A DNA stretch of 63,272 nucleotides from Thermodesulfobacteriota bacterium (GTDB lineage: Bacteria > Desulfobacterota > UBA8473): positions 1 to 63,272 of the forward strand of contig JBFLWQ010000020.1 of assembly GCA_040757775.1 (NCBI GenBank), read 5' to 3'. This document shows, one piece after another, positions 3,794 to 29,068 of the stretch (its first letter is position 1; every line of letters starts with the position of its first letter). The notes under the pieces were generated by a model. It was not told the origin of the DNA. It did no database searches and saw only the letters and a program-made list of their open reading frames with translations. The position numbers and the translations under genes were made by a program.

Positions 3794-5908
3794 TCATACG
3801 AGTTTCAAAGCGACGATCAAAATATCAATAAGTTTAATACCGATGAATGGAACAATTAGGCCGCCGATACCATAAATAATCAAATTCCGCGTTAAAATGG
3901 TGCCAGCTCCTAGTGGACGATATTTGACACCACGCAATGCCAACGGAACCAGTGTAATGATGATGATCGCATTAAAAATAACTGCGGAGAGAATGGCGCT
4001 TTGAGGTGAGGCTAGCTTCATGATATTGAGTGTCGTTAATGGACCTGGACTTCCTGTCACAGCATAGAGCGTGCTGAAAAGTGCAGGTAATATCGCGAAA
4101 TATTTTGCCACGTCATTGGAGATGCTAAACGTGGTGAGTGCGCCACGCGTCATCAGCAACTGTTTACCGATTTCAACGATCTCTATCAGCTTGGTGGGAT
4201 TGCTATCTAAATCAACCATATTGCCTGCTTCACGGGCGGCTTGGGTACCAGTGTTCATGGCTACACCGACATCAGCCTGTGCTAGTGCTGGAGCGTCATT
4301 GGTGCCGTCGCCGATCATGGCAACCAGCCGACCATGCGCCTGTTCTTCGCGAATGCGTTGCAATTTAGTCTCTGGCGTGGCTTGCGCGATAAAATCATCT
4401 ACACCGGCCTCTGCTGCGATTGATGCTGTTGTGAGCGGATTATCGCCGGTGATCATTACAGTCCGAATGCCCATCGCCCGCAGTTGCTCGAAGCGTTCTT
4501 TGATGCCGCCTTTTACCACATCCTTCAGTTGAATGATCCCCAAAAGTTCAAGATTTTCCACTACCAACAGTGGCGTGCCTCCTGCCAGGGCAATATCGGT
4601 TCCAATCATCAACGCAACGTTCATATCTATGCTGGAAGCCTGCTCCATTGCTCCGCTCTCAACTAAATACTTGCGGATGGCTTCTAGAGAACCTTTTCGA
4701 ATGATTCGTGCTGGGTGTCCTTCAGCAGTGAGGATATCTACCCCACTCATCTGCGTCTGTGCACGGAAGGGAACAAACTGTGCTTGCAGTCCCTTGATAT
4801 CCCGCCCGCGTAGACCAAAGCGCTCTTTTGCCAACACCACAATTGAACGGCCTTCAGGTGTTTCGTCAGCCAGCGAGGCCAATTGGGCAGCATCGGCCAA
4901 ACGTTCCTCTGTTGCAGTTGGAGTAGGTATGAATTCCGTGGCTATGCGATTGCCAAGTGTGATCGTGCCAGTTTTATCTAAAAGCAGTACGTCGATATCG
5001 CCTGCCGCTTCGACCGCGCGACCGCTAGTGGCCAACACATTACGCCTGACCAGACGATCCATGCCGCTGATGCCAATGGCGCTGAGTAAACCTCCAATGG
5101 TCGTTGGTGCGAGACACACAAGCAGGGATACTAACACCGGAACCGTCAGCAAAGAGGATGTTCGCATTCCCGCAGCTTTTTCGCTATATATGTCAAAGGG
5201 CAGTAACGAGACGACGACCATCACAAAAATAAAGGTGAGCGCGACGAGCAAAATTGTCAATGCAATCTCATTCGGTGTTTTGCGGCGTTTGGCGCCTTCT
5301 ACCATCGCAATCATGCGGTCAAGAAAAGTGCTACCTGCTTCCGAGGTTATACGGATGATAATTTTGTCGCTTAACACGCGCGTACCGCCGGTGACGGCGC
5401 TACGATCGCCGCCACTCTCACGAATGACCGGGGCGGATTCGCCGGTGATGGCCGATTCATCAACGCTGGCAATACCCTCGATTACTTCGCCATCGCCTGG
5501 TATAATGTCACCGGCTTCACAGACCACCATATCGCCGACTTTCAATTCAGCCGCAGCGATTTTTTCTTCACAACCATTGACTAAGCAACGGGCCATGGTT
5601 TTTGTGCGCATTTTACGGAGGCTTTCTGCTTGGGCATTGCCACGACCTTCGGCAACAGCTTCCGCAAAATTTGCAAACAACAATGTAAGCCACAGCCAGA
5701 TCGTAATTTGAATATTGAAACTATTAAGGTTCCCTGTGATCAACTCGCGGATAACAGTAATAGTTGTCAGAATCGCTCCGACAAAGACAACGAACATAAC
5801 TGGATTTTTGACCTGCCAACGCGGGTTGAGCTTGACAAACGCATCCATGAGCGCGCGAGATATGATTGCTTTATCAAAAAGTTTGGGAGTTTTTCTTTTC
5901 ATGTCCAT
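3794..5908 (-). CDS. kdpB: Potassium-transporting P-type ATPase subunit B
   Basis: A 704-residue P-type ATPase, the energy-coupling subunit of the Kdp K+ pump. It has the actuator TGES motif (residues 155-158), the phosphorylation motif DKTGT with catalytic Asp311, and the hinge motif GDGTND. Membrane helices lie at about 36-80, 215-240 and 253-280, with more near the C-terminus. All catalytic residues seem intact, so the pump itself should work. It lies between kdpA and kdpC. Like the rest of the cluster it is richer in GC than the flanking genes, and its antisense strand is therefore open over long stretches. Confidence 0.97.
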
Positions 5909-5948
5909 TAAGCTTTAGAATGAATAATCAATCTGACAAGAAATATTA

Positions 5949-7640
5949 TTAGAATGCTCGACCAGCAAGCATGAGAAAATGTTCGATAAGTGGTCCAAGT
6001 GAAAGCGCCGGGAAGAACGTCAGTGCGCCAACAATGATGACGATAGCAAGAAGCAAGATGACGAACGTTGCATTGTCGGTTTGAAAGGTTCCGGCAGAAA
6101 ACGGCGCCGTTTTTTTGCTGGCCATGCTGCCAGCGATGGCCAAAACCGGCACGATGATCGCAAAACGCCCGATAAGCATGGCGATGCCAAGCAAAATATT
6201 GTAAAAATCGGTGTTGGTATTTAATCCGGCAAATGCGCTCCCATTGTTGCCCGCTGCTGAGGAGAAGGCATAAAGGATTTCGCTCAGCCCGTGCGGACCT
6301 TTGTTGGCAAGGCTCAATAGACCAGCGCCGGTTACACACGCAATCGCGGAGAATACTAGAATGATGAAGCTCGGCGCAATGACCGCTACCATGGACATTT
6401 TCACTTCAAAGGCTTCGATTTTTTTGCCAAGATATTCTGGAGTTCTGCCGACCATCAAACCTGCAATGAAAACCGTCAGAATCACAAAAACGAGCATCCC
6501 ATAAAGTCCCGCACCGACACCGCCGAAAATCACCTCACCGAGCATGATGTTGAGCATAGCTACCAAACCGGCAAGCGGTGAAAGGCTGCTGTGCATCGCA
6601 TTCACGGAACCGTTGGAGGCAACAGTGGTTGCGGTTGCCCACAGCAAGCTGTTGGCAACACCAAAACGTGTTTCCTTGCCCTCCATTGCAGCGGAGACAC
6701 CGGTCACAGGATTAAAGCCATATTCAGCCAAGAGCGACACGGTCAATCCAGTCAGAAAAAGAATCATCATTGCCGCGAAAATCGCCCAGCCTTGTCGGGT
6801 AGAACCAATCATTTTACCATAGGTGTAAGTCAAAGCGGCTGGAATCAATAGAATGGAAAACATCTGTAAAAAATTGCTAAGTGGTGTGGGGTTCTCGAGG
6901 GGATGCGAGCTGTTGGCATTGAAGAAACCACCGCCATTGGTGCCCAATTGTTTGATGGCGATTTGCGAAGCGGCTGGCCCGAGCGGAATGGTTTGACTAT
7001 AGCCTTCGAGTGTCTCAATTTTTACAGCAGGTGAGAACGTCTGCACTACACCTTGCCCAACGAGTACGATCGAAAGAATAAATGAAAGCGGCAAAAGAAT
7101 ATATAATGTTGAGCGGACGAGATCGACCCAGAAATTGCCAATGGTCTGCATTGCTCGCCGTACTAAACCACGCACCAACGCTAACAATACCGCAATGCCG
7201 GTTGCTGCGCTTAAAAAATTCTGCACGGTAATCCCTAGCATTTGGCTGAAATAGCTGAGTGTGGTTTCACCCGCATAGCTTTGCCAATTCGTATTCGTCA
7301 TGAAACTAACTGCCGTGTTGAACGCCAACGCAGCGGGCACGTTCGGCAACTCCTGGGGATTGAGCGGCAGTTTATCCTGAATCAGTTGCATGACGAAAAG
7401 AACAACGAAGCCAAGAAAATTGAAGATTAGCAGTGCCCAAGTGTATGTTGACCAATGCATTTCGGTTTTTTCATTAATTCCCGCAAGCCGGTAAATGAAT
7501 TTTTCTAATGGTCGCAGCAATGGTGTCAGCCAAGTTTGTTCACCGCTAAAAACTTTCGCCATGAACTGGCCAAGCAGAGGTGTCAACGCAATCAGCAAAC
7601 CGAGATAAAGAGCTAACTGCACGATCTCATGTAATGACAT
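5949..7640 (-). CDS. kdpA: Potassium-transporting ATPase subunit A
   Basis: A 563-residue KdpA, the K+-selective channel-like subunit with four pore-loop repeats. The selectivity loops are visible: TNTNWQSYAGE (about 115-125), TNGGGFFNANS (from 234) and NNGSAFAG near the C-terminus. About ten hydrophobic helices fit the superfamily of K+ transporters. It is the first gene of the kdpABCD run, and kdpB begins 40 nt downstream. I could not find a kdpF-like 25-30 residue hydrophobic peptide ahead of it. Length and motifs are normal. Confidence 0.97.
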   Translation of the reverse strand: MSLHEIVQLALYLGLLIALTPLLGQFMAKVFSGEQTWLTPLLRPLEKFIYRLAGINEKTEMHWSTYTWALLIFNFLGFVVLFVMQLIQDKLPLNPQELPNVPAALAFNTAVSFMTNTNWQSYAGETTLSYFSQMLGITVQNFLSAATGIAVLLALVRGLVRRAMQTIGNFWVDLVRSTLYILLPLSFILSIVLVGQGVVQTFSPAVKIETLEGYSQTIPLGPAASQIAIKQLGTNGGGFFNANSSHPLENPTPLSNFLQMFSILLIPAALTYTYGKMIGSTRQGWAIFAAMMILFLTGLTVSLLAEYGFNPVTGVSAAMEGKETRFGVANSLLWATATTVASNGSVNAMHSSLSPLAGLVAMLNIMLGEVIFGGVGAGLYGMLVFVILTVFIAGLMVGRTPEYLGKKIEAFEVKMSMVAVIAPSFIILVFSAIACVTGAGLLSLANKGPHGLSEILYAFSSAAGNNGSAFAGLNTNTDFYNILLGIAMLIGRFAIIVPVLAIAGSMASKKTAPFSAGTFQTDNATFVILLLAIVIIVGALTFFPALSLGPLIEHFLMLAGRAF

Positions 7641-17862: not shown

Positions 17863-17915
17863 TATTAAAAATTTATTGATTGAACAGTAAATTTAATCTG
17901 TTTAAGGAGTATATT

Positions 17916-18647
17916 GTGTCTACAAAAGATAAACTTATAAAAGCAGCAAAGAAACTTTTCTATGAAAAAGGATACCATGCAACCTCTCTGAAGGATCTGG
18001 CGAAAGAAATGGGTGCAGCTACAAGCATCATCTATTATTATTTCAAAAACAAGGAAGAACTTCTGGTAAGGCTATATGAAGGTGCGCTCGAGGAAACAAT
18101 AGATGATATTTCGAAAATAGCTCAATCTGATATGACCACAACTGAAAAAATGACCGAGATCATCAAATACCATGGAAGGTTCGTAATGGGAAACCAAACG
18201 TGGTCGAAGATTTTTTTTGAAGAGGAATCGGCACTTCCTTCTGATTTTCAAAAATCGATATCGGAGAAAAAACGACAGTATAACAAAATAGTAGAGGATA
18301 TATACTCTAACGGTATAAGGGAAGGGGTATTTAAGCCAGTATCAGACCCAAGGATATTTGTAAATGCTATTCTCGGCATGTGTAATTGGTTATATAAATG
18401 GTATAGGCGTGACAAAGGGGGCGATCCCGAAAAAATTTCTCAACAGTTTGCAGATATTTTAACAGAAGGTTACATTGTCTCGAAAAAGAAATATTTGGAT
18501 CAAGAACAAGAAGCTATTCCGCTTGACACAGGAACACGAGAATTATCTAAAGCTGACAACAAACAGGAAGAGATAATTAGTAAAATTCAAATTCTTACCT
18601 CAATGACGGAATCAATAGCTGAAAAATTAGATGCTATTCGTAAATGA
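17916..18647 (+). CDS. TetR family transcriptional regulator
   Basis: A regulator of about 243 residues when started at GTG 17916, which has AAGGAG 7 nt upstream. An upstream in-frame TTG at 17880 has no such site. The helix-turn-helix lies in the first 60 residues (KLIKAAKKLFYEKGYHATSL, then ATSIIYYYFKNKEELL). The ligand-binding half resembles regulators of fatty-acid or acyl-CoA genes. The tail from about residue 200 adds a charged helix, possibly a coiled coil. It stands at the head of the receptor, dehydratase and mutase cluster, and the first receptor gene starts 45 nt downstream, so it probably controls at least part of the cluster in response to an acyl-CoA or related ligand. Confidence 0.88.
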   Translation: MSTKDKLIKAAKKLFYEKGYHATSLKDLAKEMGAATSIIYYYFKNKEELLVRLYEGALEETIDDISKIAQSDMTTTEKMTEIIKYHGRFVMGNQTWSKIFFEEESALPSDFQKSISEKKRQYNKIVEDIYSNGIREGVFKPVSDPRIFVNAILGMCNWLYKWYRRDKGGDPEKISQQFADILTEGYIVSKKKYLDQEQEAIPLDTGTRELSKADNKQEEIISKIQILTSMTESIAEKLDAIRK

Positions 18648-18692
18648 TTGAGGAAGGATATAGTCAATTCATGTCTATGAAAGGAGCGAACC

Positions 18693-19400
18693 ATGAAAAA
18701 ATTATCGGTTGTTTTATTCACATTGCTACTAATCTGTTATTTATCTGCAAATGTAAGGTCGGGCAATGCAGGAGAGGTCAGAGGTGTAACTGATGACACC
18801 CTAAAGATCGGAATGATTTCTGATCAAACTGGTCCTGCTGCAAATGTCACCGTGCCTCTTACCGATGCTGTAAAAAGGCATAATGTAAACAACATTATAT
18901 TGTGTGGTTTTATCCCTCAACCTGCTGGTTTACTGCTCCGGGAATTGAAAAAGTTTGGTATGAACGTGCCTGTTTTTGCTAACGTGGCCGCAGCCTCTGA
19001 AGAGGTGATATACATGGCTGCCGGAGGAGCTGAAAAATACTATGTAATATCCCCTTGGGCCTCGTGGTATGATGAGGGTGAGGGTGTAGCTCTCATGAGG
19101 AAGATAACACTCAAGTATGAGCCTGGCACAGAAAAACAGTATAGAGGGAAACTCCATACATACGGTTGGACAATTGGAATGGTGTTGCAGGAAGGACTTT
19201 TAAGGGCCGGCAGGGATATAGATGGAGAGCGGTTGGTAACAGCCCTTGAGACACTAAAAGATTTTGATATGAAAGGGCTATCTGGTCCTATGAATTTTAG
19301 TTCTACCAATCATAAAGGAATGAATTCAGCGCAAATCTCTAAGGCTGACCCTGCAAGCGGAAAGTTTGCCCCTGTAACCGGGTGGATAAAAACCGATTAA
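18693..19400 (+). CDS. Branched-chain-type ABC receptor with large in-frame internal deletion
   Basis: A 235-residue member of the periplasmic-binding family (Peripla_BP_6, LivJ-like). It begins with a Sec signal peptide and the local family motif RGVTDDTLKIG. After VPLTDAV the sequence jumps to KRHNVNNIIL, which in the intact paralogue at 26618 lies about 164 residues later. The C-terminal part then continues unbroken (ASWYDEG, KYEPGTEK, GWIKTD). The deletion removes most of lobe 1 and part of lobe 2, so normal ligand binding is unlikely, yet the frame and the ribosome-binding site (AAGGAG) are intact. It is either a degrading gene or a shortened receptor with a new role. Confidence 0.85.
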   Translation: MKKLSVVLFTLLLICYLSANVRSGNAGEVRGVTDDTLKIGMISDQTGPAANVTVPLTDAVKRHNVNNIILCGFIPQPAGLLLRELKKFGMNVPVFANVAAASEEVIYMAAGGAEKYYVISPWASWYDEGEGVALMRKITLKYEPGTEKQYRGKLHTYGWTIGMVLQEGLLRAGRDIDGERLVTALETLKDFDMKGLSGPMNFSSTNHKGMNSAQISKADPASGKFAPVTGWIKTD

Positions 19401-19580
19401 CTTGATATTGGCTCCTCATGGTTTTGATCATTTCTATTCTCCTGGAAGAAGGGTTTTTAGGAAAAGCTCTTTAATGATGAAGAAAACCAGGTCTCGTTAG
19501 ATAGTCGCATTTAAATACAGAGTGATAATCAATAAGCTATAAGGAACGGGTACAAATTTTACTAGAGGGGGAATAAATTT

Positions 19581-20969
19581 ATGTATACAGATTTTTTGAA
19601 ATTATGTGGTTATGAGGATGAAGAATTAAAGAAGGAAATGCCCAGGATAGACAAGGCGTTTGATATCCTCGGGATAGGGAAGGAGGACATAAGCCGGGCA
19701 GAAAAACGTGTTCGGGAGAGTTTCGATATTGAGCTTGAGGGTGTACGGAAGTTTCTTAGAGTATATATGGAGGAGCTTGTATCCTTACCTTTATGTCGGG
19801 AGGAGTACAGGAAGGTCATCTATACTGACTGGCCTTTTCCTGGTGCCATGTTGATGGCAATTGAGAAGCTATCGGGCGATGTCTTTATCAGTGCATATGG
19901 AGAAGTACTGAATGTCGGTATGGGCATGATCTTTGACAAACTCAGCCCGATTATGGAAGCAGGTGAACAGACTGGACTGGGTGTAGGATCTGCTCACTGT
20001 GCCCTCTGGCAGACCCATGTGGGAGCCATTGCAAAAGGGATACTGCCATTACCCGACTTGATGATTTCATCTGGTTGGTATTGTGATCAGGCTGCGGAAG
20101 CAGACCAGCTTTTAGCTGAACTCTATAGTATCCCTACCGTTTATATGGACGGTTGCCTGGACGCCCAGTGGGGGGAATGGCCTGATCACTTGAGCGAGAG
20201 GATGACCCGATATAGCGGAGGTCAGCTGGAGAAAGTTTTTAAAAGACTAGAGGAGGTAACAGGTTATACGATAACAGAAGAGATGCGCAAGGCCGGTCGC
20301 AGAGACCAAGGAAAGTTTTATTATAACCTTAGCACCCTGGCAGAGATGGTGGGAAAAAGCGATCCTCAGGCAATCAGTCAAGCTGTTATTAACCTTCCAT
20401 TCTGGCTGACTGGCAGCCCTATGAGGAAAAGAGAAGATGCGAATACTGCCTTGATTACATTGATTAGAGAAACGAAAGAACGGATAGAAAGGGGCGAGGG
20501 AGTAGTTGAAAAGGGTGCTCCCAAGATATACTTTGGGCTCCGGATGGCTGTTGATGCATCTGTACTCAAGATGGTAGAAAGTCTTGGACTGGCTATCTCT
20601 CTATGTTTTATCGATTGGATAACCCCGGAGGAGCGTACAACAAGAGGAAAAGCAACCGACTTTGGCCAGAAGGTAATGGAAGGGTGGTTTAGACGAGGGC
20701 TGATGTATTCTGCACAGGGAGCAATAGACTATTTTGCAGATTACTGTAAAGCATGGAATGTGGATGGGGCTATTCTCTGTTATCCGTATTCATGTCGTCC
20801 ATATGCCATTCATCCATTGATGGGAAAAAAGACGATAAAGGAAAGGTTAGGTATACCCGTGTTGGTCCTGGAGGGAGATGCCTATGATACTCGAAATTAC
20901 AGTGCCGGTCAGTTAAGAACAAGGGTTGAAACATTTGCAGAACTGTTGAAGATGAGGAAAGGTACTTAG
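19581..20969 (+). CDS. 2-hydroxyacyl-CoA dehydratase / benzoyl-CoA reductase family subunit
   Basis: A 462-residue protein of the HgdB/FldB/BcrB-C family, whose members bind a [4Fe-4S] cluster and carry out radical dehydration of 2-hydroxyacyl-CoA or reductive dearomatisation. Likely ligand-region cysteines are seen in GSAHCALW, WYCDQAAE, GCLDAQWGEW and YPYSCRPYAIH. The C-terminus has the typical LEGDAYDTRNYSAGQLRTR signature. Such enzymes normally need a second homologous subunit and an ATP-dependent activase (HgdC-like); neither is in the window. It lies between two receptor genes with the same orientation. The family is clear; substrate and completeness are not. Confidence 0.82.
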   Translation: MYTDFLKLCGYEDEELKKEMPRIDKAFDILGIGKEDISRAEKRVRESFDIELEGVRKFLRVYMEELVSLPLCREEYRKVIYTDWPFPGAMLMAIEKLSGDVFISAYGEVLNVGMGMIFDKLSPIMEAGEQTGLGVGSAHCALWQTHVGAIAKGILPLPDLMISSGWYCDQAAEADQLLAELYSIPTVYMDGCLDAQWGEWPDHLSERMTRYSGGQLEKVFKRLEEVTGYTITEEMRKAGRRDQGKFYYNLSTLAEMVGKSDPQAISQAVINLPFWLTGSPMRKREDANTALITLIRETKERIERGEGVVEKGAPKIYFGLRMAVDASVLKMVESLGLAISLCFIDWITPEERTTRGKATDFGQKVMEGWFRRGLMYSAQGAIDYFADYCKAWNVDGAILCYPYSCRPYAIHPLMGKKTIKERLGIPVLVLEGDAYDTRNYSAGQLRTRVETFAELLKMRKGT

Positions 20970-21072
20970 TTCATCCTGCTCATGTTCGCTCCAAAAGAAA
21001 TTTTTCATTTTTCAGGGTGGACTGGAATACGTTAACTGTCAAATAAACGTATTATAACAGGAGGATATAACT

Positions 21073-22296
21073 ATGAAAAAAGAACTTTTGGTTAGGGGGT
21101 GTACTTTTGCGGCCATATGTCTTTCGGTAATAGCCTTGATGTTCCTTTTGGGAAGCAACTACGCAGACTCTGCGGAGATGAGGGGTGTTACCAAAGACAC
21201 TATAAAGATTGGTTTGATACTCGATCAGACAGGTCCTTCAACGTTTCTGACTGTCCCGATAACGAAAGGGGCTAAGATGTATCTCACGCACGTTAATGAA
21301 CAGGGAGGAATAAATGGGAGAAAGATAAAGCTCATAATAGAAGATGATCATTATTCAGTACCTATAGCTGTGGCCGCATTTAAGAAACTGGTATCAAAGG
21401 ACGGAGTGCTTGCTATCCTCGGGACAGGGGGTACTTCCATGACCAAAGCCCTATGGTCAAAGATAGAGAAAGAAAGGGTGCCATGTTTCACTGTGAGTCT
21501 GGCAGAGATTCAGGTTAACCCGACTAAGCGATACCTCTTTACACCTGTTGCCAGTTATGAGGACGAGATTAAGATCATATTTAATTATCTAATGAATGTT
21601 TTAAAAGTAAAAAATCCTCGAATAGCCATGGCCTGTCTGGATTTGGACTATGGTAAAATCGGTTTCGCTGCTGCAGAGAAGGAGGCCAAGTCTTTTGGCT
21701 TAAAGATAGTGGATAAGGAGTTAGTCGCTTTAGGAGCATTGGAGGCGAGTACTCAAGTGCTCGGTCTGAAGCGGGCACAAGCTGATTATGTTATTCTCCA
21801 TCTAGAGCCAGCCGCGGGGGCAGCAGTCCTAAGGGATGCCTTTAAACTAGGATTTAAAACCCAATGGATCGGAACTTACTATACGACCAGTGAGGATCTT
21901 CTGAGGGTCTCTCGCAAGGCGGCAGAGGGCTTCATTGGAGTCCATTCCTATAACTCCTGGTATGAAGATGCACCGGCGATGGCTGAATTGAGAAAGATCA
22001 CCCTGAAATACGAACCCGGAACGGAAAAACCATATCGTCCCAAATATTATGTCCAGGGATGGGTGGACGCCTTGATTTTGAGCGAAGGGATGAGAAGGGC
22101 AGGGCAGAACTTGACACCTGAAGCGCTGGTGGAGGGCATAGAAAGCATAAAAAACTTCGATACTAAAGGTTTGTGCGGACCGATTACCTATGGCCCCGAT
22201 AAACACAAGGGAAATGAGTATTGCAGGTTTTACAAAGCCGACACTGACAACGCTATACTTATACCCATTACCGACTGGATGAAACCGTCAGAGTGA
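21073..22296 (+). CDS. Branched-chain-type ABC transporter substrate-binding protein
   Basis: A 407-residue periplasmic receptor, second of five paralogues here. A Sec signal peptide of about 35 residues ends near DSAEMRG. The mature part starts RGVTKDTIKIGLILDQTGP and contains GGINGRKIKLIIEDD, the hinge-side ASTQVLGLKRA and HSYNSWYEDAP. Length is normal for LivJ/HAAT receptors. No lipobox is visible, so it should be soluble in the periplasm. AGGAGG lies just upstream. No LivHMGF permease or ATPase genes accompany it. The ligand may be an amino acid, aromatic or short-chain acid and cannot be fixed from sequence. Confidence 0.93.
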   Translation: MKKELLVRGCTFAAICLSVIALMFLLGSNYADSAEMRGVTKDTIKIGLILDQTGPSTFLTVPITKGAKMYLTHVNEQGGINGRKIKLIIEDDHYSVPIAVAAFKKLVSKDGVLAILGTGGTSMTKALWSKIEKERVPCFTVSLAEIQVNPTKRYLFTPVASYEDEIKIIFNYLMNVLKVKNPRIAMACLDLDYGKIGFAAAEKEAKSFGLKIVDKELVALGALEASTQVLGLKRAQADYVILHLEPAAGAAVLRDAFKLGFKTQWIGTYYTTSEDLLRVSRKAAEGFIGVHSYNSWYEDAPAMAELRKITLKYEPGTEKPYRPKYYVQGWVDALILSEGMRRAGQNLTPEALVEGIESIKNFDTKGLCGPITYGPDKHKGNEYCRFYKADTDNAILIPITDWMKPSE

Positions 22297-22368
22297 TAGT
22301 GGCGATATATTAACATTATTATAAACTTGACATCACACCCCCCCTATATTATAACCTTTACGATAAAC

Positions 22369-22430
22369 CTCCGTCGACAGGAGTCGGCGGCTTCTTCCTT
22401 TCCAAGCTTCGCTTGAACCCCTAGGGCAGC
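22369..22430 (-). mobile_element. Possible IS200/IS605-type right end or omega-RNA-like remnant
   Basis: Read on the minus strand, this stretch has a short CCCTAGGG palindrome, a perfect hairpin (CAAGC-GAA-GCTTG) and then GAAGCCGCCGACTCCTGTC, which folds into an 8-bp stem with one mismatch. This order and the GAAGCC...CGAC start resemble the right ends of IS605-family elements, which also form the 3' scaffold of TnpB guide RNAs. No tnpA or tnpB is nearby, so at most this is a relic. Confidence 0.4.
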
Positions 22431-22477
22431 CACTCCATCACCAGACAGGAGTCTATAGTGAACAACCTCGAAAAGTA

Positions 22478-22568
22478 GTCATTGCGAGGAGCGAGTGAGC
22501 CAAAGCCCTGAGCGAAGTCAAAGGAACGTGGCAATCCCAAGATATTGCTTCAGTTGGTTCGCAATGAC
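22478..22568. repeat. Short inverted-repeat element (REP-like)
   Basis: GTCATTGCGA at 22478-22487 and TCGCAATGAC at 22559-22568 are perfect 10-bp inverted repeats around 71 bp. Related ends (GTCATTTCGA / TCGGAATGAC and GTAATTCCGA / TCGAAATGAC) occur at 38019 and 52096, so this is a dispersed family. Confidence 0.7.
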
Positions 22569-22652
22569 AAATGCTGGATGTTAACTTATTTATGTCATTC
22601 ACTATAGTGTGTTATGTGGCATAATAAAACGAATTTATAAGGAGGGGAGAAA

Positions 22653-23855
22653 ATGAATAAAAAGAGTGTATTTCCCTTAATAATCCTGTTCTTAGTTTTG
22701 TTATGGGTATTTTCCACAACCCGTGTTATACAAGCCGGTGATACGACGGGTGTGACCGATGATACGATAGCGCTCGGGCATATTTTAGATTATACAGGTC
22801 CAGCGGCTGAAACCACTTTGCAAATTAGCAAAGCTATTGAGGCCTATTTTAGAGATTTCAACGAACGGGGTGGGGTTAATGGAAGAAAGATTGAATTTTT
22901 AAAAGAAGATGATCGTTACTCAATACCTGGAGCAATCGCAGCATTTAAAAAATTGGTCTTTAAAGATAAGGTATTTGTGTGTCTCAGTGTTGGAGGAACA
23001 GGGCAAACCCTTGCTCTGTCTGAACAAATAGCTAAGAATAAGATACCCTGTATTGTTATAAGCAAGTCTCGCGTAATGACAGAGCCTTTAAAGAAATATA
23101 TATTTACTGGAGGTCCTTCCCATGATGACATCACTGCTGTTTTAATAGATTACATAGTAAAAGACCTGAGGGCGAAAAGCCCTAAGGTAGCTATTGGATA
23201 CCCTGATGTTAGCTATGGAAAAGAGGTCTTAGATGGGCTAACCAAACGGCTTAAACACCATGGTTTAGAACCGGTAGCTATAGAGGTTATTCCCATTGGG
23301 GCTGTGGATGCTTCGTCTCAAGCCCTGAATGTAAAAAAGAAAGGGGCAGAATATGCCATTATGATAGGGACACCGGTCATGTCTATCGCTTTTATGAAGT
23401 TTTCAAATGTATATGGTTATAAACCGGTGCACATAGGCTATTATTATAATTGCTCAGAGACTATTCCGAAAGCCCTTGGTAAAATTGCAGAAGGGTTTTT
23501 GGGGGTTCATGCTTTTGTCTCCTGGGATAATGATGTACCAGGAATGATAAAGGCAAAAAAGATATCACTTAAATATTATCCAGGCTGGAAGGCTACTGAC
23601 ATAGGTTTTGCAGAAGGTATAGTAAACTCCATACTCACTGAAGATGCGTTAAGAAGGGCTGGAAGGGACTTAAGCAGAGAGAAGTTTATTGAAGCCCTCG
23701 AATCTACAAAAAACCTGGAGGTAGGGGGGATAGGTGCCCCTTTAACCATTACTCCTACAAATCATAAGGCAAGTGATTCTGCCATAATATTCAAGGCAGA
23801 TCTTAAGGAAAAGATTATGGTACCTGTAGGAGGCTGGAGGAAACCGCTTCCTTAA
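22653..23855 (+). CDS. Branched-chain-type ABC transporter substrate-binding protein
   Basis: A 400-residue periplasmic receptor, third paralogue. It has a Sec signal peptide (about 30 residues, ending QAGD) and then TGVTDDTIALGHILDYTGP. GGVNGRKIEFLKEDDRYS and HAFVSWDNDVPG match the family, while the usual KYEPGTEK is replaced by KYYPGWKA, marking it as the most divergent of the five. A strong AAGGAGG lies upstream. Its ligand pocket probably differs from its siblings. No transporter subunits are linked to it. Confidence 0.92.
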   Translation: MNKKSVFPLIILFLVLLWVFSTTRVIQAGDTTGVTDDTIALGHILDYTGPAAETTLQISKAIEAYFRDFNERGGVNGRKIEFLKEDDRYSIPGAIAAFKKLVFKDKVFVCLSVGGTGQTLALSEQIAKNKIPCIVISKSRVMTEPLKKYIFTGGPSHDDITAVLIDYIVKDLRAKSPKVAIGYPDVSYGKEVLDGLTKRLKHHGLEPVAIEVIPIGAVDASSQALNVKKKGAEYAIMIGTPVMSIAFMKFSNVYGYKPVHIGYYYNCSETIPKALGKIAEGFLGVHAFVSWDNDVPGMIKAKKISLKYYPGWKATDIGFAEGIVNSILTEDALRRAGRDLSREKFIEALESTKNLEVGGIGAPLTITPTNHKASDSAIIFKADLKEKIMVPVGGWRKPLP

Positions 23856-24091
23856 TTTGATCCTAAAGACAAACTTGGAATATTGAAAAATGAACAGGAT
23901 TAAATGGAGCAGGGGTACTGGCCAGACGGACCGTTAAACTGGCAAAAATAATAAACTACCCTGTAACAAACTACAGAGAGGTATTATTTAGCTTCGGCTC
24001 TGAAATCTCGATACAAAACTTAGCAGAAGAAAATTCTATAGGTTTTGACCGGGGGCAGTAGTTCAATCTTTGCTTATATGGAGGTCAAGAT

Positions 24092-25777
24092 ATGGAAGAA
24101 CGTCATCGTGTTTTCAACGAGCAATCGTTGCAACAGATCGAAAGGGAGACAGAAACGTGGAAGAACGGGCTCCCCAAAAAGGATGAGGATGGTCAATTTG
24201 AATCCCTTTCTGGAGTTCTTGTCGAGCCCATCTATACCCCTAACCACATCGCCAAAATGGATTACCTTCAGGACATTGGCTTTCCCGGACAGCCACCCTT
24301 TGTGCGAGGGGTTTATCCGGATATGTACAGGGGAAGACTTTGGACCATGAGGCAATTAGCGGGCTTTGGCCCCCCTGAAGAGACCAACAAACGGTACAGA
24401 TTTTTACTCGATCAGGGAGCAACGGGGCTGAACGGAACGTTCGATTATCCTACCCTCAGGGGTTATGACTCCACCGATCCTATGGCCGAGGCGGATACGG
24501 GAAGAGGTGGTGTCGCCATTGACACAGTTGAGGACATGGTAATACTCTTCAACGGAATCCCGATCGATCAGGTCAGTGTTTCTCTGGTGACTTGCCAGCC
24601 AATCTGCAACATCTCCGTTCAATCTATGTATTTTGCCTATGCACAATCAATGGGGATTCCTCTCGATCGTCTCACAGGAACCAGCCAGAATGACTTTATG
24701 ATGGAGACAGCAATAACCATTGCACCTGGGGTTTTGCCCCCCGATGCCTCTTTCAAGCTCTGCTGTGATGCTATTGAGTACTGTGCACACCATGCCCGCC
24801 GGTGGAACCCGGTGAGTTTTGCGGGTTATAATTACCGGGAGGCAGGGTGTACGGCTGCAGAGGAGATCGCTTTCGTGTTCCAGAATGCGATTGGTTGCAT
24901 CGAGGAACTGATCAAGAGGGGATTGCAGGTTGACAGTTTTGCACCAAGGCTTAGCTTCTTCTTCTCCTCTCACAGTGATTTTTTTGAGGAGATTGCCAAA
25001 TACAGGGCCGCGAGAAGGATATGGAACAAGATCATGAAAGACCGTTTTGGTGCCGAAAACCCTCGTTCCTGTGCCCTTCGTTTTCACGTGCAGACGGCTG
25101 GTGTCAGCCTTACAGCGCAGCAGCCCCTGAACAATATCTCGAGATCTGCATACCAGGCTCTTTCCGCCGTTCTTGGTGGGGCACAGTCCGTTCATGTAGA
25201 CGCTTATGATGAAGCCCTGTGTACACCTACCGAACTTTCGTCCTTAACGGCACTTAGGACCCAGCACATCCTGCAGCATGAAACTCGAACTACCCATACG
25301 GTGGACCCCCTCGGAGGGTCCTACTTCGTAGAATCCCTCACAGAGGAGATTGAGAAAAGAATACTTTCCCTGGTAGATGAAATCGATTCTATGGGAGGAA
25401 TCGTAAAGGCCGTCTCGTCAGGGTGGATTCATGGTGCAATCGCCCGATCTGCTTATGAATACCAGAAGGACATTGAGACTGGAAAAATGAAAGTAGTAGG
25501 ATTGAACTGTTACCGTATTGAGGATGAGGTTTTACCAATCGAGCTTTTTGAGGTGCCGGAGACGGTTGAAGTTCAGAGGAGAAAGCTTGAAAGGATAAAG
25601 AAGGAACGAAGTGCTCAGAAAGTTAAAGCCGCACTGGACACTCTCGCAAAGGCTTGTGAGGCAGGTGAAAATCTTATGGAGGTTATTGTAGATTGTGTCA
25701 AGGAGCGAGTTACTGAAGGGGAAATTTCGGCTGTTTTAAAGTCGCACTTCGGAACATGGTACCCTCCCCTTTTCTGA
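24092..25777 (+). CDS. Cobalamin-dependent acyl-CoA mutase, large subunit, atypical active site
   Basis: A 561-residue protein homologous to the TIM-barrel catalytic part of methylmalonyl-CoA mutase, without a B12 domain; that domain is encoded by the next gene. Core motifs are conserved ([35 protein letters not shown]). Three residues that define known mutases are changed: the Tyr89 position is Leu89 (RQLAGF), the Arg207 position is Thr209, and His244 is Asn247 (GYN in place of GYH). Tyr/Arg marks methylmalonyl-CoA mutase and Phe/Gln isobutyryl-CoA mutase, so Leu/Thr suggests another substrate or altered catalysis. GGAGG precedes the ATG. The family is certain; the reaction is unknown. Confidence 0.88.
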   Translation: MEERHRVFNEQSLQQIERETETWKNGLPKKDEDGQFESLSGVLVEPIYTPNHIAKMDYLQDIGFPGQPPFVRGVYPDMYRGRLWTMRQLAGFGPPEETNKRYRFLLDQGATGLNGTFDYPTLRGYDSTDPMAEADTGRGGVAIDTVEDMVILFNGIPIDQVSVSLVTCQPICNISVQSMYFAYAQSMGIPLDRLTGTSQNDFMMETAITIAPGVLPPDASFKLCCDAIEYCAHHARRWNPVSFAGYNYREAGCTAAEEIAFVFQNAIGCIEELIKRGLQVDSFAPRLSFFFSSHSDFFEEIAKYRAARRIWNKIMKDRFGAENPRSCALRFHVQTAGVSLTAQQPLNNISRSAYQALSAVLGGAQSVHVDAYDEALCTPTELSSLTALRTQHILQHETRTTHTVDPLGGSYFVESLTEEIEKRILSLVDEIDSMGGIVKAVSSGWIHGAIARSAYEYQKDIETGKMKVVGLNCYRIEDEVLPIELFEVPETVEVQRRKLERIKKERSAQKVKAALDTLAKACEAGENLMEVIVDCVKERVTEGEISAVLKSHFGTWYPPLF

Positions 25778-25953
25778 GTTTCAGATTTTTTCAGGTTCAC
25801 CACTATGAACAGTGACATGAACACAATCTCACCATTGAAGGATACAGTGAGGGAGTCCAAAATAAGACCTCAGATTTACCGACAGATTGATTATACGCCA
25901 GTTACAAGGCGTAGTTGAAACCAAGAGACAGTAAGATTTGGAAAGGCAGGAAG

Positions 25954-26346
25954 ATGGATAAGAAAATTCGCGTTGTTATGGCGCGCCTCGGACTTGATGC
26001 ACACTGGCGGGGTAGCATAATTGTTGCCCAGGCATTGAGGGACGCAGGCATGGAGGTAATCTACGTTGGAAACAAAATGCCCGATGCGATTGTCGAGACA
26101 GCTTTACAAGAAGATGCAGATATAATTGGATTAAGCACCCTTTCAGGAAATCACTCTATCCTTGCCCCCAGGGTTGTTGAAATACTGAGGCAAAAGGGAG
26201 AGTACAATATTCCAGTCATTCTGGGAGGGACCATTCCACCAGGAGATGTTCCTAAGCTCAAGGATGCCGGAATTTCAGAGGTCTTCGGACCGGGGAGTTC
26301 GCTCGAGAGGATTATTGAGTTCGTCTTATCTACACAGCGTACCTAA
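25954..26346 (+). CDS. B12-binding subunit of the atypical acyl-CoA mutase
   Basis: A 130-residue cobalamin-binding domain, read from ATG 25954 with an AGGCAGGA site upstream; an in-frame TTG at 25915 is less likely. The base-off signature is DAHWRG with Asp15 and His17 (the lower ligand), followed by GLSTLSG and ILGGTIP. In methylmalonyl-CoA mutase this motif reads KPGLDGHDRG; here the conserved Lys (Lys604 equivalent) is Arg11 and GHD is AHW. It lies about 175 nt after the large subunit and must supply the coenzyme to it. Its unusual motif parallels the changed residues in the large subunit. Confidence 0.87.
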   Translation: MDKKIRVVMARLGLDAHWRGSIIVAQALRDAGMEVIYVGNKMPDAIVETALQEDADIIGLSTLSGNHSILAPRVVEILRQKGEYNIPVILGGTIPPGDVPKLKDAGISEVFGPGSSLERIIEFVLSTQRT

Positions 26347-26617
26347 ACCGCCTTTTCCAAAGCGTAGGTCCTACTTCTCCCCATAACCACTGAAACAGGG
26401 GCATTTTGGAAGGTACATGGAGAGGTATCATTTTACCCAACTAAATCAACAGCGCCGCCATTAGCCCCTTTTCCGAATAATTCCCTGTGGAACGGCCACA
26501 AGACATTCAATCTATTGTCAGTCCCTCGGCTATCCAACAGGAGCCTTTTAAGAATACCCGTCAATGCGAAGTAACGTTAGGTCAATTTTTAATTCACCAC
26601 CGTGAAAGGGGGGAATC

Positions 26618-27817
26618 ATGCAAAGGTTATCTATTATTTCAATATTAGTACTGATCCTTCTTTTTTTTGCAGGCACAAGGTTGAGTCAAGCAAAAGAGGT
26701 CAGAGGTGTAACAGACAAATCAATCAAAATTGGTGCTGTTCTTGATCAAACAGGGCCTGCTGCATCTGCAACTGTTCCATTCACTCAGGGGATAAGGAGC
26801 TATGTCAGGTTTATTAATGAAGGAGGCGGTATTCATGGAAGAAAATTAGATCTGATTGTAGAAGATGACCGTTATTCAATTGCCGCCACTATTGCTGCAT
26901 TTAAGAAGCTGGTTTATAAGGATAATATATTTGCTTATATAGGTCCTGGGTCTGGGGGGTTTTTTAATGTACTCTGGAGCAAGATGCAAAAAGAGAAATT
27001 ACCAACTATAGCTCTACCAATGCCTGAAATCGCTGTTGAGCCTTTTAAAAGGTACATCTTTATTACCAGTGATACCTATGAGGGGCAGATAAGAGTCCTT
27101 GTCGACTATATTATAAAAGACTATGGACTAAAGGAACCAAGAATCGGCTTGATTTATCCTGATACAGAGGTAGGTAAAATTGATATGAGGGCTGCGCTAC
27201 CGAGATTAAAAAAGTACAATTTAGAACCTGTAACCAAGGAGGTCCTGATGGCTGGTGCAATAGATGCCAGTTCCCAGGTTATGAACTTAAAGAGGTATAA
27301 GGTCAACTGTGTACTTAGTGTCGGGAGTATCACCTCTACGGCTGTGACCTTATTACGAGAATTAAGGAAGTTTGGTCTAAATATACCGGTCTTTAATAGT
27401 TGGGCATCAATGACTACGGAGGATCTGAATTACATTGGTGAAGCTGCAAATCAGGCATATTCAATTCATGCGAATTCTCCCTGGTACGGTGAAGGTCCTG
27501 GGGTAGCAAAGATGAGAGAAATTACTCTGAAATATAATCCAGGAACAGAAAAGCCTTATCGTGGTCCCTTATACACGCATGGATGGGTAGTTTCGACTAT
27601 TATGACAGAGGGGCTTAAGAAAGCTGGTAGAGATCTGGATGTAGAAGTCTTCGTAGATGCTCTAGAGACCATAAAGAATTATGATACTGGTGGGCTCTGC
27701 AATCCTATCACTTTCAGTTCGGTAAGCCACAAAGGCGGGGATTCATGGAAGGTTTACAAAGCAGACCCCGTTGGAAAAAAATATGTCGCTATTACGGGAT
27801 GGAGAAAGTCAGAGTAG
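26618..27817 (+). CDS. Branched-chain-type ABC transporter substrate-binding protein
   Basis: A 399-residue periplasmic receptor, fourth paralogue. A Sec signal peptide ends near SQAKEV, followed by [37 protein letters not shown] and NSPWYGEGPG. It is the closest intact match to the internally deleted receptor at 18693, especially at ATVPFTQGI, KRYKVN and KYNPGTEKPYRG, and gives the reference for that deletion. GGGG-rich ribosome-binding site upstream. It follows the mutase pair by about 270 nt and precedes the fifth receptor by 48 nt, with which it is probably cotranscribed. Confidence 0.93.
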   Translation: MQRLSIISILVLILLFFAGTRLSQAKEVRGVTDKSIKIGAVLDQTGPAASATVPFTQGIRSYVRFINEGGGIHGRKLDLIVEDDRYSIAATIAAFKKLVYKDNIFAYIGPGSGGFFNVLWSKMQKEKLPTIALPMPEIAVEPFKRYIFITSDTYEGQIRVLVDYIIKDYGLKEPRIGLIYPDTEVGKIDMRAALPRLKKYNLEPVTKEVLMAGAIDASSQVMNLKRYKVNCVLSVGSITSTAVTLLRELRKFGLNIPVFNSWASMTTEDLNYIGEAANQAYSIHANSPWYGEGPGVAKMREITLKYNPGTEKPYRGPLYTHGWVVSTIMTEGLKKAGRDLDVEVFVDALETIKNYDTGGLCNPITFSSVSHKGGDSWKVYKADPVGKKYVAITGWRKSE

Positions 27818-27865
27818 TATTAAGCGTATTGCAGTAGCTAAAGTAATAAAGAAAAGAGGTGAAAA

Positions 27866-29068
27866 ATGAAAAGAACGGTATTTGTGGCAATTGCATTGTT
27901 AGGCAGTATTTTTTTCATTACCGCTTCACACGGTAAGGCAGCGGAAGTCAGGGGAGTAACGGATACCTTGATAAAAATAGGGTCAATAGGCGATCACACA
28001 GGGCCTACCTCGAATTTCATTGTTCCAGTTGTCGAAGCCAGCAAAAACTATTTTAGATACATAAACGATCAAGGGGGCATACACGGACGGAAGTTACAAT
28101 TAATCGCAGAGGATTCCCGTTATTCAATTCCCACATCAGTAGCGGCATTTAAGAAGCTGATATCTAAAGATCAAGTGCTGGCAATTTTAGGCCCTGTCTC
28201 CACTGGTGAGACCAGGGTACTGTTTCGGCATATTGAAAAGGACAAGGTGCCTTCATTAGTATATGCCGCAGACAGATCCGTTATGGAACCGTATAAGAGA
28301 TATATATTCCCGACCACCAGCCTGTATGATATGGAATGGGGAGTAGTTTTTGATTATATTTTTAATGAGTTGAAGCCCGTAAGCCCGAAGATTGCCAGCT
28401 GCTATCCGGATATTGAATCGGGAAAAGTTTCCCATAGAGGAGCCGAGAAATGGGCAAAGTTTTTCAACGTAAAGCTTCATACAGAGATAATTCCCTTAAG
28501 CGCTATTGATGTTACCTCTCAGGTTCTTTCAATGAAGAAAGCGGGAGTAACCCATGTCCTGATATTTCACGTTGCACCACCGGTCGCCTTGCTCCTTAGT
28601 GAATTAAAAAGGTTTGGTCTCAACATACCTGTCTTTGGGATCAGTGCTTCAACCACGGAAGACCTTATTAAGATAGCTGGCGAAAAAGCAAAGAATTTCA
28701 TAGGTGCCAGTCATTACAGCTCCTGGTACGAAGAGAACCCCGGGGCAAAGAATATGGCGGAGATAAGCCTGAAATATTTCCCAGACGCTTTAAAACTTTA
28801 TGGAGTCAGGAGTTACACTGTAGGGTGGGTTAGATCTCTTGTTCTCTGTGAAGGGATCAAGAGAGCAGGGAAGGACTTAAATGCTGAAAGCCTTGTGGGT
28901 GCATTGGAAACCCTGAAGGATTTCGATACACAAGGGCTCTGCGGGCCCATAACATATACACCCACTATGCATTATGTGTTGAACTACAATAAGGTTTTCA
29001 AGACCAATCCTGCGAGTGGCAAATTTATACCAATTACTGATTGGAGACTGCCGCCTTCAGAAAAATGA
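27866..29068 (+). CDS. Branched-chain-type ABC transporter substrate-binding protein
   Basis: A 400-residue periplasmic receptor, fifth paralogue. It has a Sec signal peptide (cleavage near GKAAEV), then [49 protein letters not shown] and [12 protein letters not shown]. Length is normal. AGAGGTG lies ahead of the ATG. It is the last of the receptor series and shares the family's N-terminal motif, but the lobe-1 ligand loop (STGETRVL) differs from its siblings. Confidence 0.93.

What the first reader, a model, noticed from the sequence alone, without database searches (positions are those of the whole stretch)
18693..19400. Receptor gene with clean in-frame deletion of about 164 codons
Aligned to the paralogue at 26618, the protein passes directly from VPLTDAV to KRHNVNNIIL with no frame change, and ends are intact. 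This removes most of one lobe. As first gene behind the TetR regulator it would still be translated. It may be a recent deletion or a shortened form with a purpose such as dimerising or a decoy.
Basis: seen in the sequence. Interest (0 to 1): 0.5.

Follow-up and report, generated by a model that had tools for sequence, protein, structure and literature searches.

The report
Receptor gene gutted by internal deletion
One of many copies of a nutrient-binding protein gene in an uncultured bacterium has lost about two fifths of its length without losing its reading frame, most likely through an ordinary copying slip between two short repeats, and probably no longer works as a receptor.

Summary
ORF 18693-19400 (235 aa) is a Peripla_BP_6 solute receptor lacking exactly 165 codons (495 bp) relative to full-length relatives, with frame, start, RBS-like sequence and stop kept. 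The closest full-length copy in the genome (G000:C17, 85% aa identity after the join) carries TATAAAAAG at both deletion ends in the same codon phase, so a deletion between short direct repeats explains it (6-10 bp, depending on which relative stands in for the lost parent). None of the relatives searched showed the same short form; the neighbouring TetR and HGD-D genes had no close match in four congeners, so no orthologous locus could be compared. The deletion guts both lobes, not one; AlphaFold2 models the short protein poorly (pLDDT 60, against 79 for a full-length relative). The genome has 78 matches to this receptor family, and a second internally deleted copy is out of frame, so this is most likely a remnant in a redundant family. 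dN/dS (0.145) shows no relaxation on the branch but cannot separate before from after the deletion. A selected role (decoy, half-receptor) is not excluded but has no positive support. The 5' leader resembles another receptor subfamily.

The parts
17880..18647 (+). TetR-family regulator gene upstream (scanned from 17916: TetR_N plus TetR_C_24)
   Evidence: ORF; Pfam PF00440 E 3.6e-17, PF17932 E 2.2e-26; best NCBIfam model FadR, 87 bits against a cut-off of 200
18680..18686 (+). AAAGGAG, ribosome-binding-site-like, 6 bases before the ATG
   Evidence: read; kept in the related leader of G000:C31 (alignment)
18693..19400 (+). internally deleted Peripla_BP_6 receptor gene, 235 aa
18666..18832 (+). 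leader segment (bases upstream of the start, signal-peptide region, start of the mature part) most like G000:C31 (79% DNA over 167 bases), unlike the leader of the C17 relative
18780..18878 (+). segment up to the join, most like G000:C17 (82% DNA over 99 bases)
18870..18878 (+). deletion junction GTAAAAAGG; the matching arms in G000:C17 are TATAAAAAGG (left) and TATAAAAAGA (right), 495 bp apart
18871..19409 (+). part downstream of the join, most like G000:C17 (85.6% DNA over 540 columns; 85% aa)
19581..20969 (+). HGD-D (2-hydroxyacyl-CoA dehydratase D-component-like) gene, next downstream
   Evidence: PF06050 E 2.8e-33; five paralogues at 70-79% in the same genome, none at E<=1e-100 in four congeners
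21073..29068 (+). rest of the island: full-length receptors 21073, 22653, 26618, 27866; methylmalonyl-CoA-mutase-type large subunit 24092-25777 and B12-binding subunit 25915-26346

Best explanation
The gene is one copy of a large family of branched-chain-amino-acid-type solute receptors that has lost 495 bp by deletion between two short direct repeats (an AAAAGG-centred stretch coding Lys-Lys/Arg in the same phase at both places), by replication slippage or a similar event. Because the repeats sit in the same phase the frame survived; by chance alone one deletion in three keeps frame. The product would still carry an export signal but lacks the core of the first lobe and half of the second, so it most likely cannot close on a ligand and is a non-functional or nearly non-functional remnant, tolerated because the family is so redundant. 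Shown: the deletion, its size and phase, the repeats in the closest intact copy, and its absence from the relatives searched. Inferred: the slippage mechanism, the loss of ligand binding, the lack of a function.
For: Single 165-codon gap with both flanks aligning. TATAAAAAG at both ends in the closest intact copy, 495 bp apart; a scan of that gene for repeats of 9 bp or more at least 30 bp apart gave 9 listings, 7 distinct pairs, one of them exactly this pair; of 88,410 in-frame junctions of 300-717 bp in that gene 281 (0.32%) have 6 bp or more of homology and 21 (0.024%) have 9 or more. Of the 14 rows that four congeners give at E<=1e-60, 11 lie in full-length frames of 406-444 aa, one (G001:C267) is cut by a contig edge, one (G003:C262) is split by a frame change without loss, one (G003:C113) near a contig edge is inconclusive. 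With a 59-aa junction peptide over 59 genomes, no listed row but the gene itself covers the whole peptide (the list was cut at its weak end). Redundancy: 78 PF13458 matches in the genome against 15 to the permease family PF02653. A second internally deleted copy at G000:C25:6536-6927 (N part to about residue 90, C part from about residue 353, 7-nt overlap of the two homologies, different frames) shows that such losses happen here. AlphaFold2: short protein mean pLDDT 59.6, residues 19-63 under 50, against 78.7 for a full-length relative with the same seven sequences.
Against: The part after the join shows no decay: omega on the short branch 0.145, background 0.204, omega = 1 rejected (2 x lnL difference 12.5), like the intact C17 branch at 0.144; of 103 columns invariant in eight relatives the short gene departs at 11 and C17 at 12, several of them shared. 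No stop in 235 codons; in 300 simulated trials per point, neutral substitution over the whole branch leaves no stop in 1%, over a fifth of it in 38%. So if the gene is dead it died late; if the deletion is old, the product has been kept. These data cannot place the deletion on the branch. With C1 instead of C17 as stand-in for the right arm the exact homology shrinks to AAAAGG, 6 bp, and just after the join the gene is closer to C1 (31 identical bases from 18883; 0.93 against 0.84 in the first 45 bases).
Confidence: 0.72

Rival explanations
1. The short protein is kept by selection: it is exported, folds as a partial receptor and acts as a decoy, a partner of a full-length receptor, or a regulator.
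For: Frame, leader, RBS-like sequence and stop are kept; no relaxation on the branch; isolated halves of ribose-binding protein fold and form a heterodimer (PMC10601554, abstract seen), so half-receptors are physically possible.
Against: The retained part is not a whole lobe: strand 1 with the start of helix 1, then the second half of lobe 2 and the C-terminal segment (elements against the missing residues 61-225 of L039:4329-5531; lobe limits recalled). The model is poor, residues 19-63 not placed. None of the relatives searched has it.
Confidence: 0.1
2. Fusion of two neighbouring receptors of the same subfamily: the deletion ran from the first part of one copy into the last half of the next, rather than within one gene.
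For: This subfamily does occur as a tandem pair in congener G004 (L039:4329-5534 and 5610-6842), and the same arms would serve. The leader resembles another subfamily, so recombination between copies has probably happened. The first 45 bases after the join are closer to C1 than to C17.
Against: The segments on both sides of the join are, taken whole, closest to the same gene, G000:C17 (0.83 of bases over the last 14 codons before the join; 0.85 over the part after it), which one intragenic event explains most simply.
Confidence: 0.09
3. Assembly error: the join was made by the assembler or by chimeric reads.
For: The genome is in 50 contigs and holds many paralogues; reads could not be mapped.
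Against: The exact homology at the join is at most 10 bp, short against the k-mers usual in assembly (about 21 or more; general knowledge). In the 35 other own-genome loci named in the script (those held, not the whole genome) no exact word of 18-39 bases spanning the join (about 18869-18884) is shared, and the longest exact word shared with the gene is 31 bp, from 18883, beside the join and not across it. The next best match in the genome is the 85% copy C17.
Confidence: 0.06
4. The short form is the old state and the full-length genes are derived.
For: None found.
Against: The full-length fold is shared with solved receptors of this kind, and the short copy groups with C17 (support 0.993) among full-length genes (tree).
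Confidence: 0.01

Closest known systems
Peripla_BP_6 / LivJ-LBP-type branched-chain amino acid ABC receptors (PF13458; solved relatives 3lkb, 4n03, 4q6w, 2lbp, 1usg)
   Same: Homologous over the retained length; a full-length relative superposes on 3lkb at Z 39.3, rmsd 2.8, 360 aligned.
   Different: Lacks 165 central codons; only profile positions 193-339 match; the short model, of low confidence, aligns best to LBP 2lbp, chain range 170-346, Z 9.1, rmsd 2.8, 96 aligned.
Expanded 'orphan' solute-receptor families (TTT/Bug receptors; PMC5994714, passages seen)
   Same: Many receptor copies and few membrane partners in one genome (here 78 against 15 domain matches).
   Different: Another receptor family (ABC, type I fold) and another group of bacteria; in that paper's main text 'truncated' and 'pseudogene' have 0 occurrences.
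Deletions between short direct repeats in bacteria (e.g. PMC3411829, Salmonella; abstract and the section on junction sequences seen)
   Same: Short direct repeat at both endpoints, material between lost with one copy of the repeat.
   Different: The confirmed Salmonella junctions had more than 10 bp of microhomology (abstract); here 6-10 bp. That paper also finds deletions enriched between genes and suggests that intragenic ones are selected against.

Membership tests
Peripla_BP_6 receptor (functional solute-binding protein) | Sequence homology to PF13458 above its cut-off | tested here: met
   58.5 bits, cut-off 31.7
Peripla_BP_6 receptor (functional solute-binding protein) | Complete two-lobed domain | tested here: not met
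   only profile 193-339 of 343; 165 codons missing
Peripla_BP_6 receptor (functional solute-binding protein) | Export signal | tested here: inconclusive
   hydrophobic N-terminus like its paralogues; no signal-peptide program was run
Peripla_BP_6 receptor (functional solute-binding protein) | Ligand binding | not testable with these tools
   needs protein
Deletion between short direct repeats | Direct repeat at both ends in the undeleted form, one copy left at the join | tested here: met
   TATAAAAAG at both ends in G000:C17; 6 bp if C1 is the stand-in for the right arm; tested on paralogues, the true parent is not available
Pseudogene | Relaxed selection after the lesion | tested here: inconclusive
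   omega 0.145 over the whole branch, not separable into before and after the deletion

The most novel reading that the evidence does not exclude
The deletion created a new small secreted protein, a partial type I receptor half, that is translated and selected and pairs with or competes against one of the full-length receptors of the same island.
Probability: 0.07. Interest if true: 0.5.

Novelty: new member of a known kind. Interest (0 to 1): 0.18.

Why it matters
As an in-frame remnant it is ordinary. Its value is as a well-delimited example, with both arms still readable in a sister gene, of how copies in a very large receptor family are lost and shuffled: one in-frame and one out-of-frame internal deletion, a tail fragment, and a leader that resembles another subfamily. 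If the short protein proved to be folded and kept, it would be a natural case of a half-receptor.

Tried and rejected
Looked for the same short form in relatives: the own genome and 29 relatives with the whole protein at E<=1e-60, the own genome and 58 relatives with the 59-aa junction peptide; not found. In one search some weak rows cross the join in part (for example peptide positions 13-58 or 1-44, 28-37% identity); they lie in longer frames and I take them for loose extensions, opening only G001:C293, where that frame holds the central part. Partial frames in congeners were opened: G001:C267 is cut by the contig edge; G003:C262 and a second receptor in G001:C293 carry both halves in two frames (frame change, no internal loss); G003:C113 lies near a contig edge and its upstream part is unclear. 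An 838-aa open frame reported for G001:C55 was opened and is two adjacent receptor frames of normal length; not pursued. The family search lists only its best rows, so it could not be used to count short forms.

Looked for the locus elsewhere: no match of 17900-19600 in plasmid records; genome contigs gave two loci, the congener JACQWO010000058 (titled a Desulfobacterales groundwater MAG) and a distant Myxococcales receptor. TetR (E<=1e-20) and HGD-D (E<=1e-100) gave no match in the four congeners, so I had no orthologous locus to compare.

Looked for decay: branch dN/dS, invariant columns and stop survival gave none that can be dated; I therefore do not call it a pseudogene outright. The dN/dS program is my own GY94/F3x4 likelihood on 174 codons and 11 genes, topology from FastTree; the approximate 95% upper bound for omega on the short branch lies between 0.3 and 0.4 (lnL table). 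The stop simulation has substitutions only, no indels.

Promoter- and terminator-like scans were not clearly richer than shuffles (9 against a mean of 8.7; 4 against 2.6). Literature searches listed no paper on this case that I recognised; I saw listings, not the papers, except for three: PMC5994714 (passages), PMC3411829 (abstract and one section), PMC10601554 (abstract). NCBIfam names no family for the short protein. Lobe limits of LBP and the usual k-mer size are recalled, from no call.

Full report
What was checked. The ORF at 18693-19400 is real: ATG, 235 aa, AAAGGAG six bases upstream, 45 bases after the stop of a TetR-family gene. Aligned to the four other receptors of the window it shows one gap of 165 columns, between VPLTDAV and KRHNVNN. 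Pfam finds PF13458 only from profile position 193 on.

The genome. The window is contig C20 of a 3.1-Mb genome in 50 contigs. One congener, G004, appears to be JACQWO01, titled a Desulfobacterales groundwater MAG (its contig and G004:C33 share the length 98,211). The genome has 78 matches to PF13458, its four congeners 41, 37, 37 and 23, against 15 matches of the own genome to the permease family PF02653. With the short protein as query the own genome gives 136 rows at E<=0.001, many genes giving two rows; 5 rows lie in frames under 399 aa, from four places: the short gene itself, G000:C25:6605-6927 (two rows), G000:C28:2680-2826 and G000:C17:62261-62404. C25 and C28 were read and are broken copies; C17:62261 was translated on the other strand only and so was not read.

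The closest intact gene and the arms. G000:C17 (419-aa open frame) is 85% identical in protein after the join and 85.6% in DNA over 540 columns. In that gene the two places that correspond to the join both read TATAAAAAG, 495 bp apart and in the same phase. Among 88,410 in-frame junctions of 300-717 bp in this gene, 281 (0.32%) have 6 bp or more of homology and 21 (0.024%) have 9 or more. A caveat: just after the join the short gene looks more like G000:C1 (31 identical bases from 18883; RH where C17 has RE), and with C1's right arm the exact homology is AAAAGG, 6 bp. So 6-10 bp is the range; the true parent is gone.

A mosaic leader. From 18666, upstream of the start codon, to about 18832 the gene resembles G000:C31 (79% DNA over 167 bases). 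Over 28 leader codons, compared without gaps, the identity is 0.76 to C31 and 0.41 to C17; over the last 14 codons before the join it is 0.48 and 0.83 (35 receptors held as loci from the genome and its congeners, not all 78). So a leader of another receptor subfamily was probably joined to a C17-type body, in addition to the deletion.

What is lost. In the full-length relative L039:4329-5531 the missing stretch is residues 61-225 (alignments). The AlphaFold2 model of that protein (pLDDT 78.7) has there the rest of helix 1, strands at 77-85, 107-110, 132-134, 149-153, 178-182 and 208-211 and the helices between. By the lobe limits of LBP, which I recall, this takes the core of lobe 1 and the first half of lobe 2. 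The short protein with the same seven sequences gives pLDDT 59.6, with residues 19-63 under 50; its low-confidence model aligns best to LBP (2lbp, chain range 170-346, Z 9.1, rmsd 2.8, 96 aligned), while the full-length relative reaches Z 39.3 with 3lkb. Low confidence with a shallow alignment is weak evidence that the protein is unfolded, but the control had the same alignment depth.

Selection. On 174 codons after the join and 11 genes, omega on the short branch is 0.145, background 0.204; omega = 1 is rejected (12.5), equality with the background is not (0.5); the intact C17 branch gives 0.144. Of 103 columns invariant in eight relatives the short gene departs at 11, C17 at 12. Neutral simulation over 20% of the branch leaves the frame free of stops in 38% of 300 trials, over the whole branch in 1%. 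The gene was under selection for most of the branch; whether the deletion came near its end cannot be told.

Relatives. Of the 14 rows from four congeners at E<=1e-60, 11 are full-length, one is cut by a contig edge, one is split by a frame change, one is unclear. The junction peptide over 59 genomes gave no other listed row that covers all of it (the list was cut at its weak end). TetR and HGD-D of this island have no match in the four congeners at the limits used.

A second case. G000:C25:6536-6927 keeps an N-terminal part (to about residue 90) and a C-terminal part (from about residue 353) with 7 nt of overlap between the two homologies, in different frames. It is the out-of-frame counterpart of the finding and the best argument that such deletions are by-products here.

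Verdict. A real, cleanly delimited, in-frame deletion, best explained by recombination or slippage between short direct repeats, in one copy of a very large receptor family; most likely a remnant; a function for the short protein is possible but unsupported.

Noticed in passing
G000:C25:6536-6927 (L030:6536-6927): A second internally deleted receptor: N part to about residue 90, C part from about residue 353, 7-nt overlap of homology at the join, out of frame.
   Followed up: partly
window 18666-18832: The leader and signal-peptide region of the short receptor resemble a receptor of another subfamily (G000:C31, 79% DNA), including bases upstream of the start codon: probable leader exchange between paralogues.
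   Followed up: yes
whole genome G000: 78 Peripla_BP_6 matches against 15 PF02653 permease matches: a large, mostly orphan receptor family. In one search the first look with the short protein gave 37-147 candidates in the five genomes of the genus and 0-15 in the 25 other genomes.
   Followed up: partly
G000:C28:2680-2826 (L031) and G000:C17:62261-62404 (L032): Further short receptor stretches; C28 is a C-terminal tail just after a full-length receptor; C17 was listed and not read on the right strand.
   Followed up: no
G003:C262 (L022) and G001:C293 (L050): Receptors of congeners split in two frames but otherwise full length: frame change by mutation or assembly error.
   Followed up: partly
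G000:C28:513-2605 (L031): The closest TetR paralogue (67%) also sits directly before a receptor gene, but that receptor is of another subfamily (46% to the short gene): regulator and receptor are paired without keeping the same receptor.
   Followed up: no
window 19581-26346 and loci L052-L055 (G000:C23, C33, C2, C28): HGD-D genes of this kind recur five more times in the genome (70-79%); in the window, C23 and C28 a methylmalonyl-CoA-mutase-type pair lies beside or near them: repeated acyl-CoA islands.
   Followed up: no
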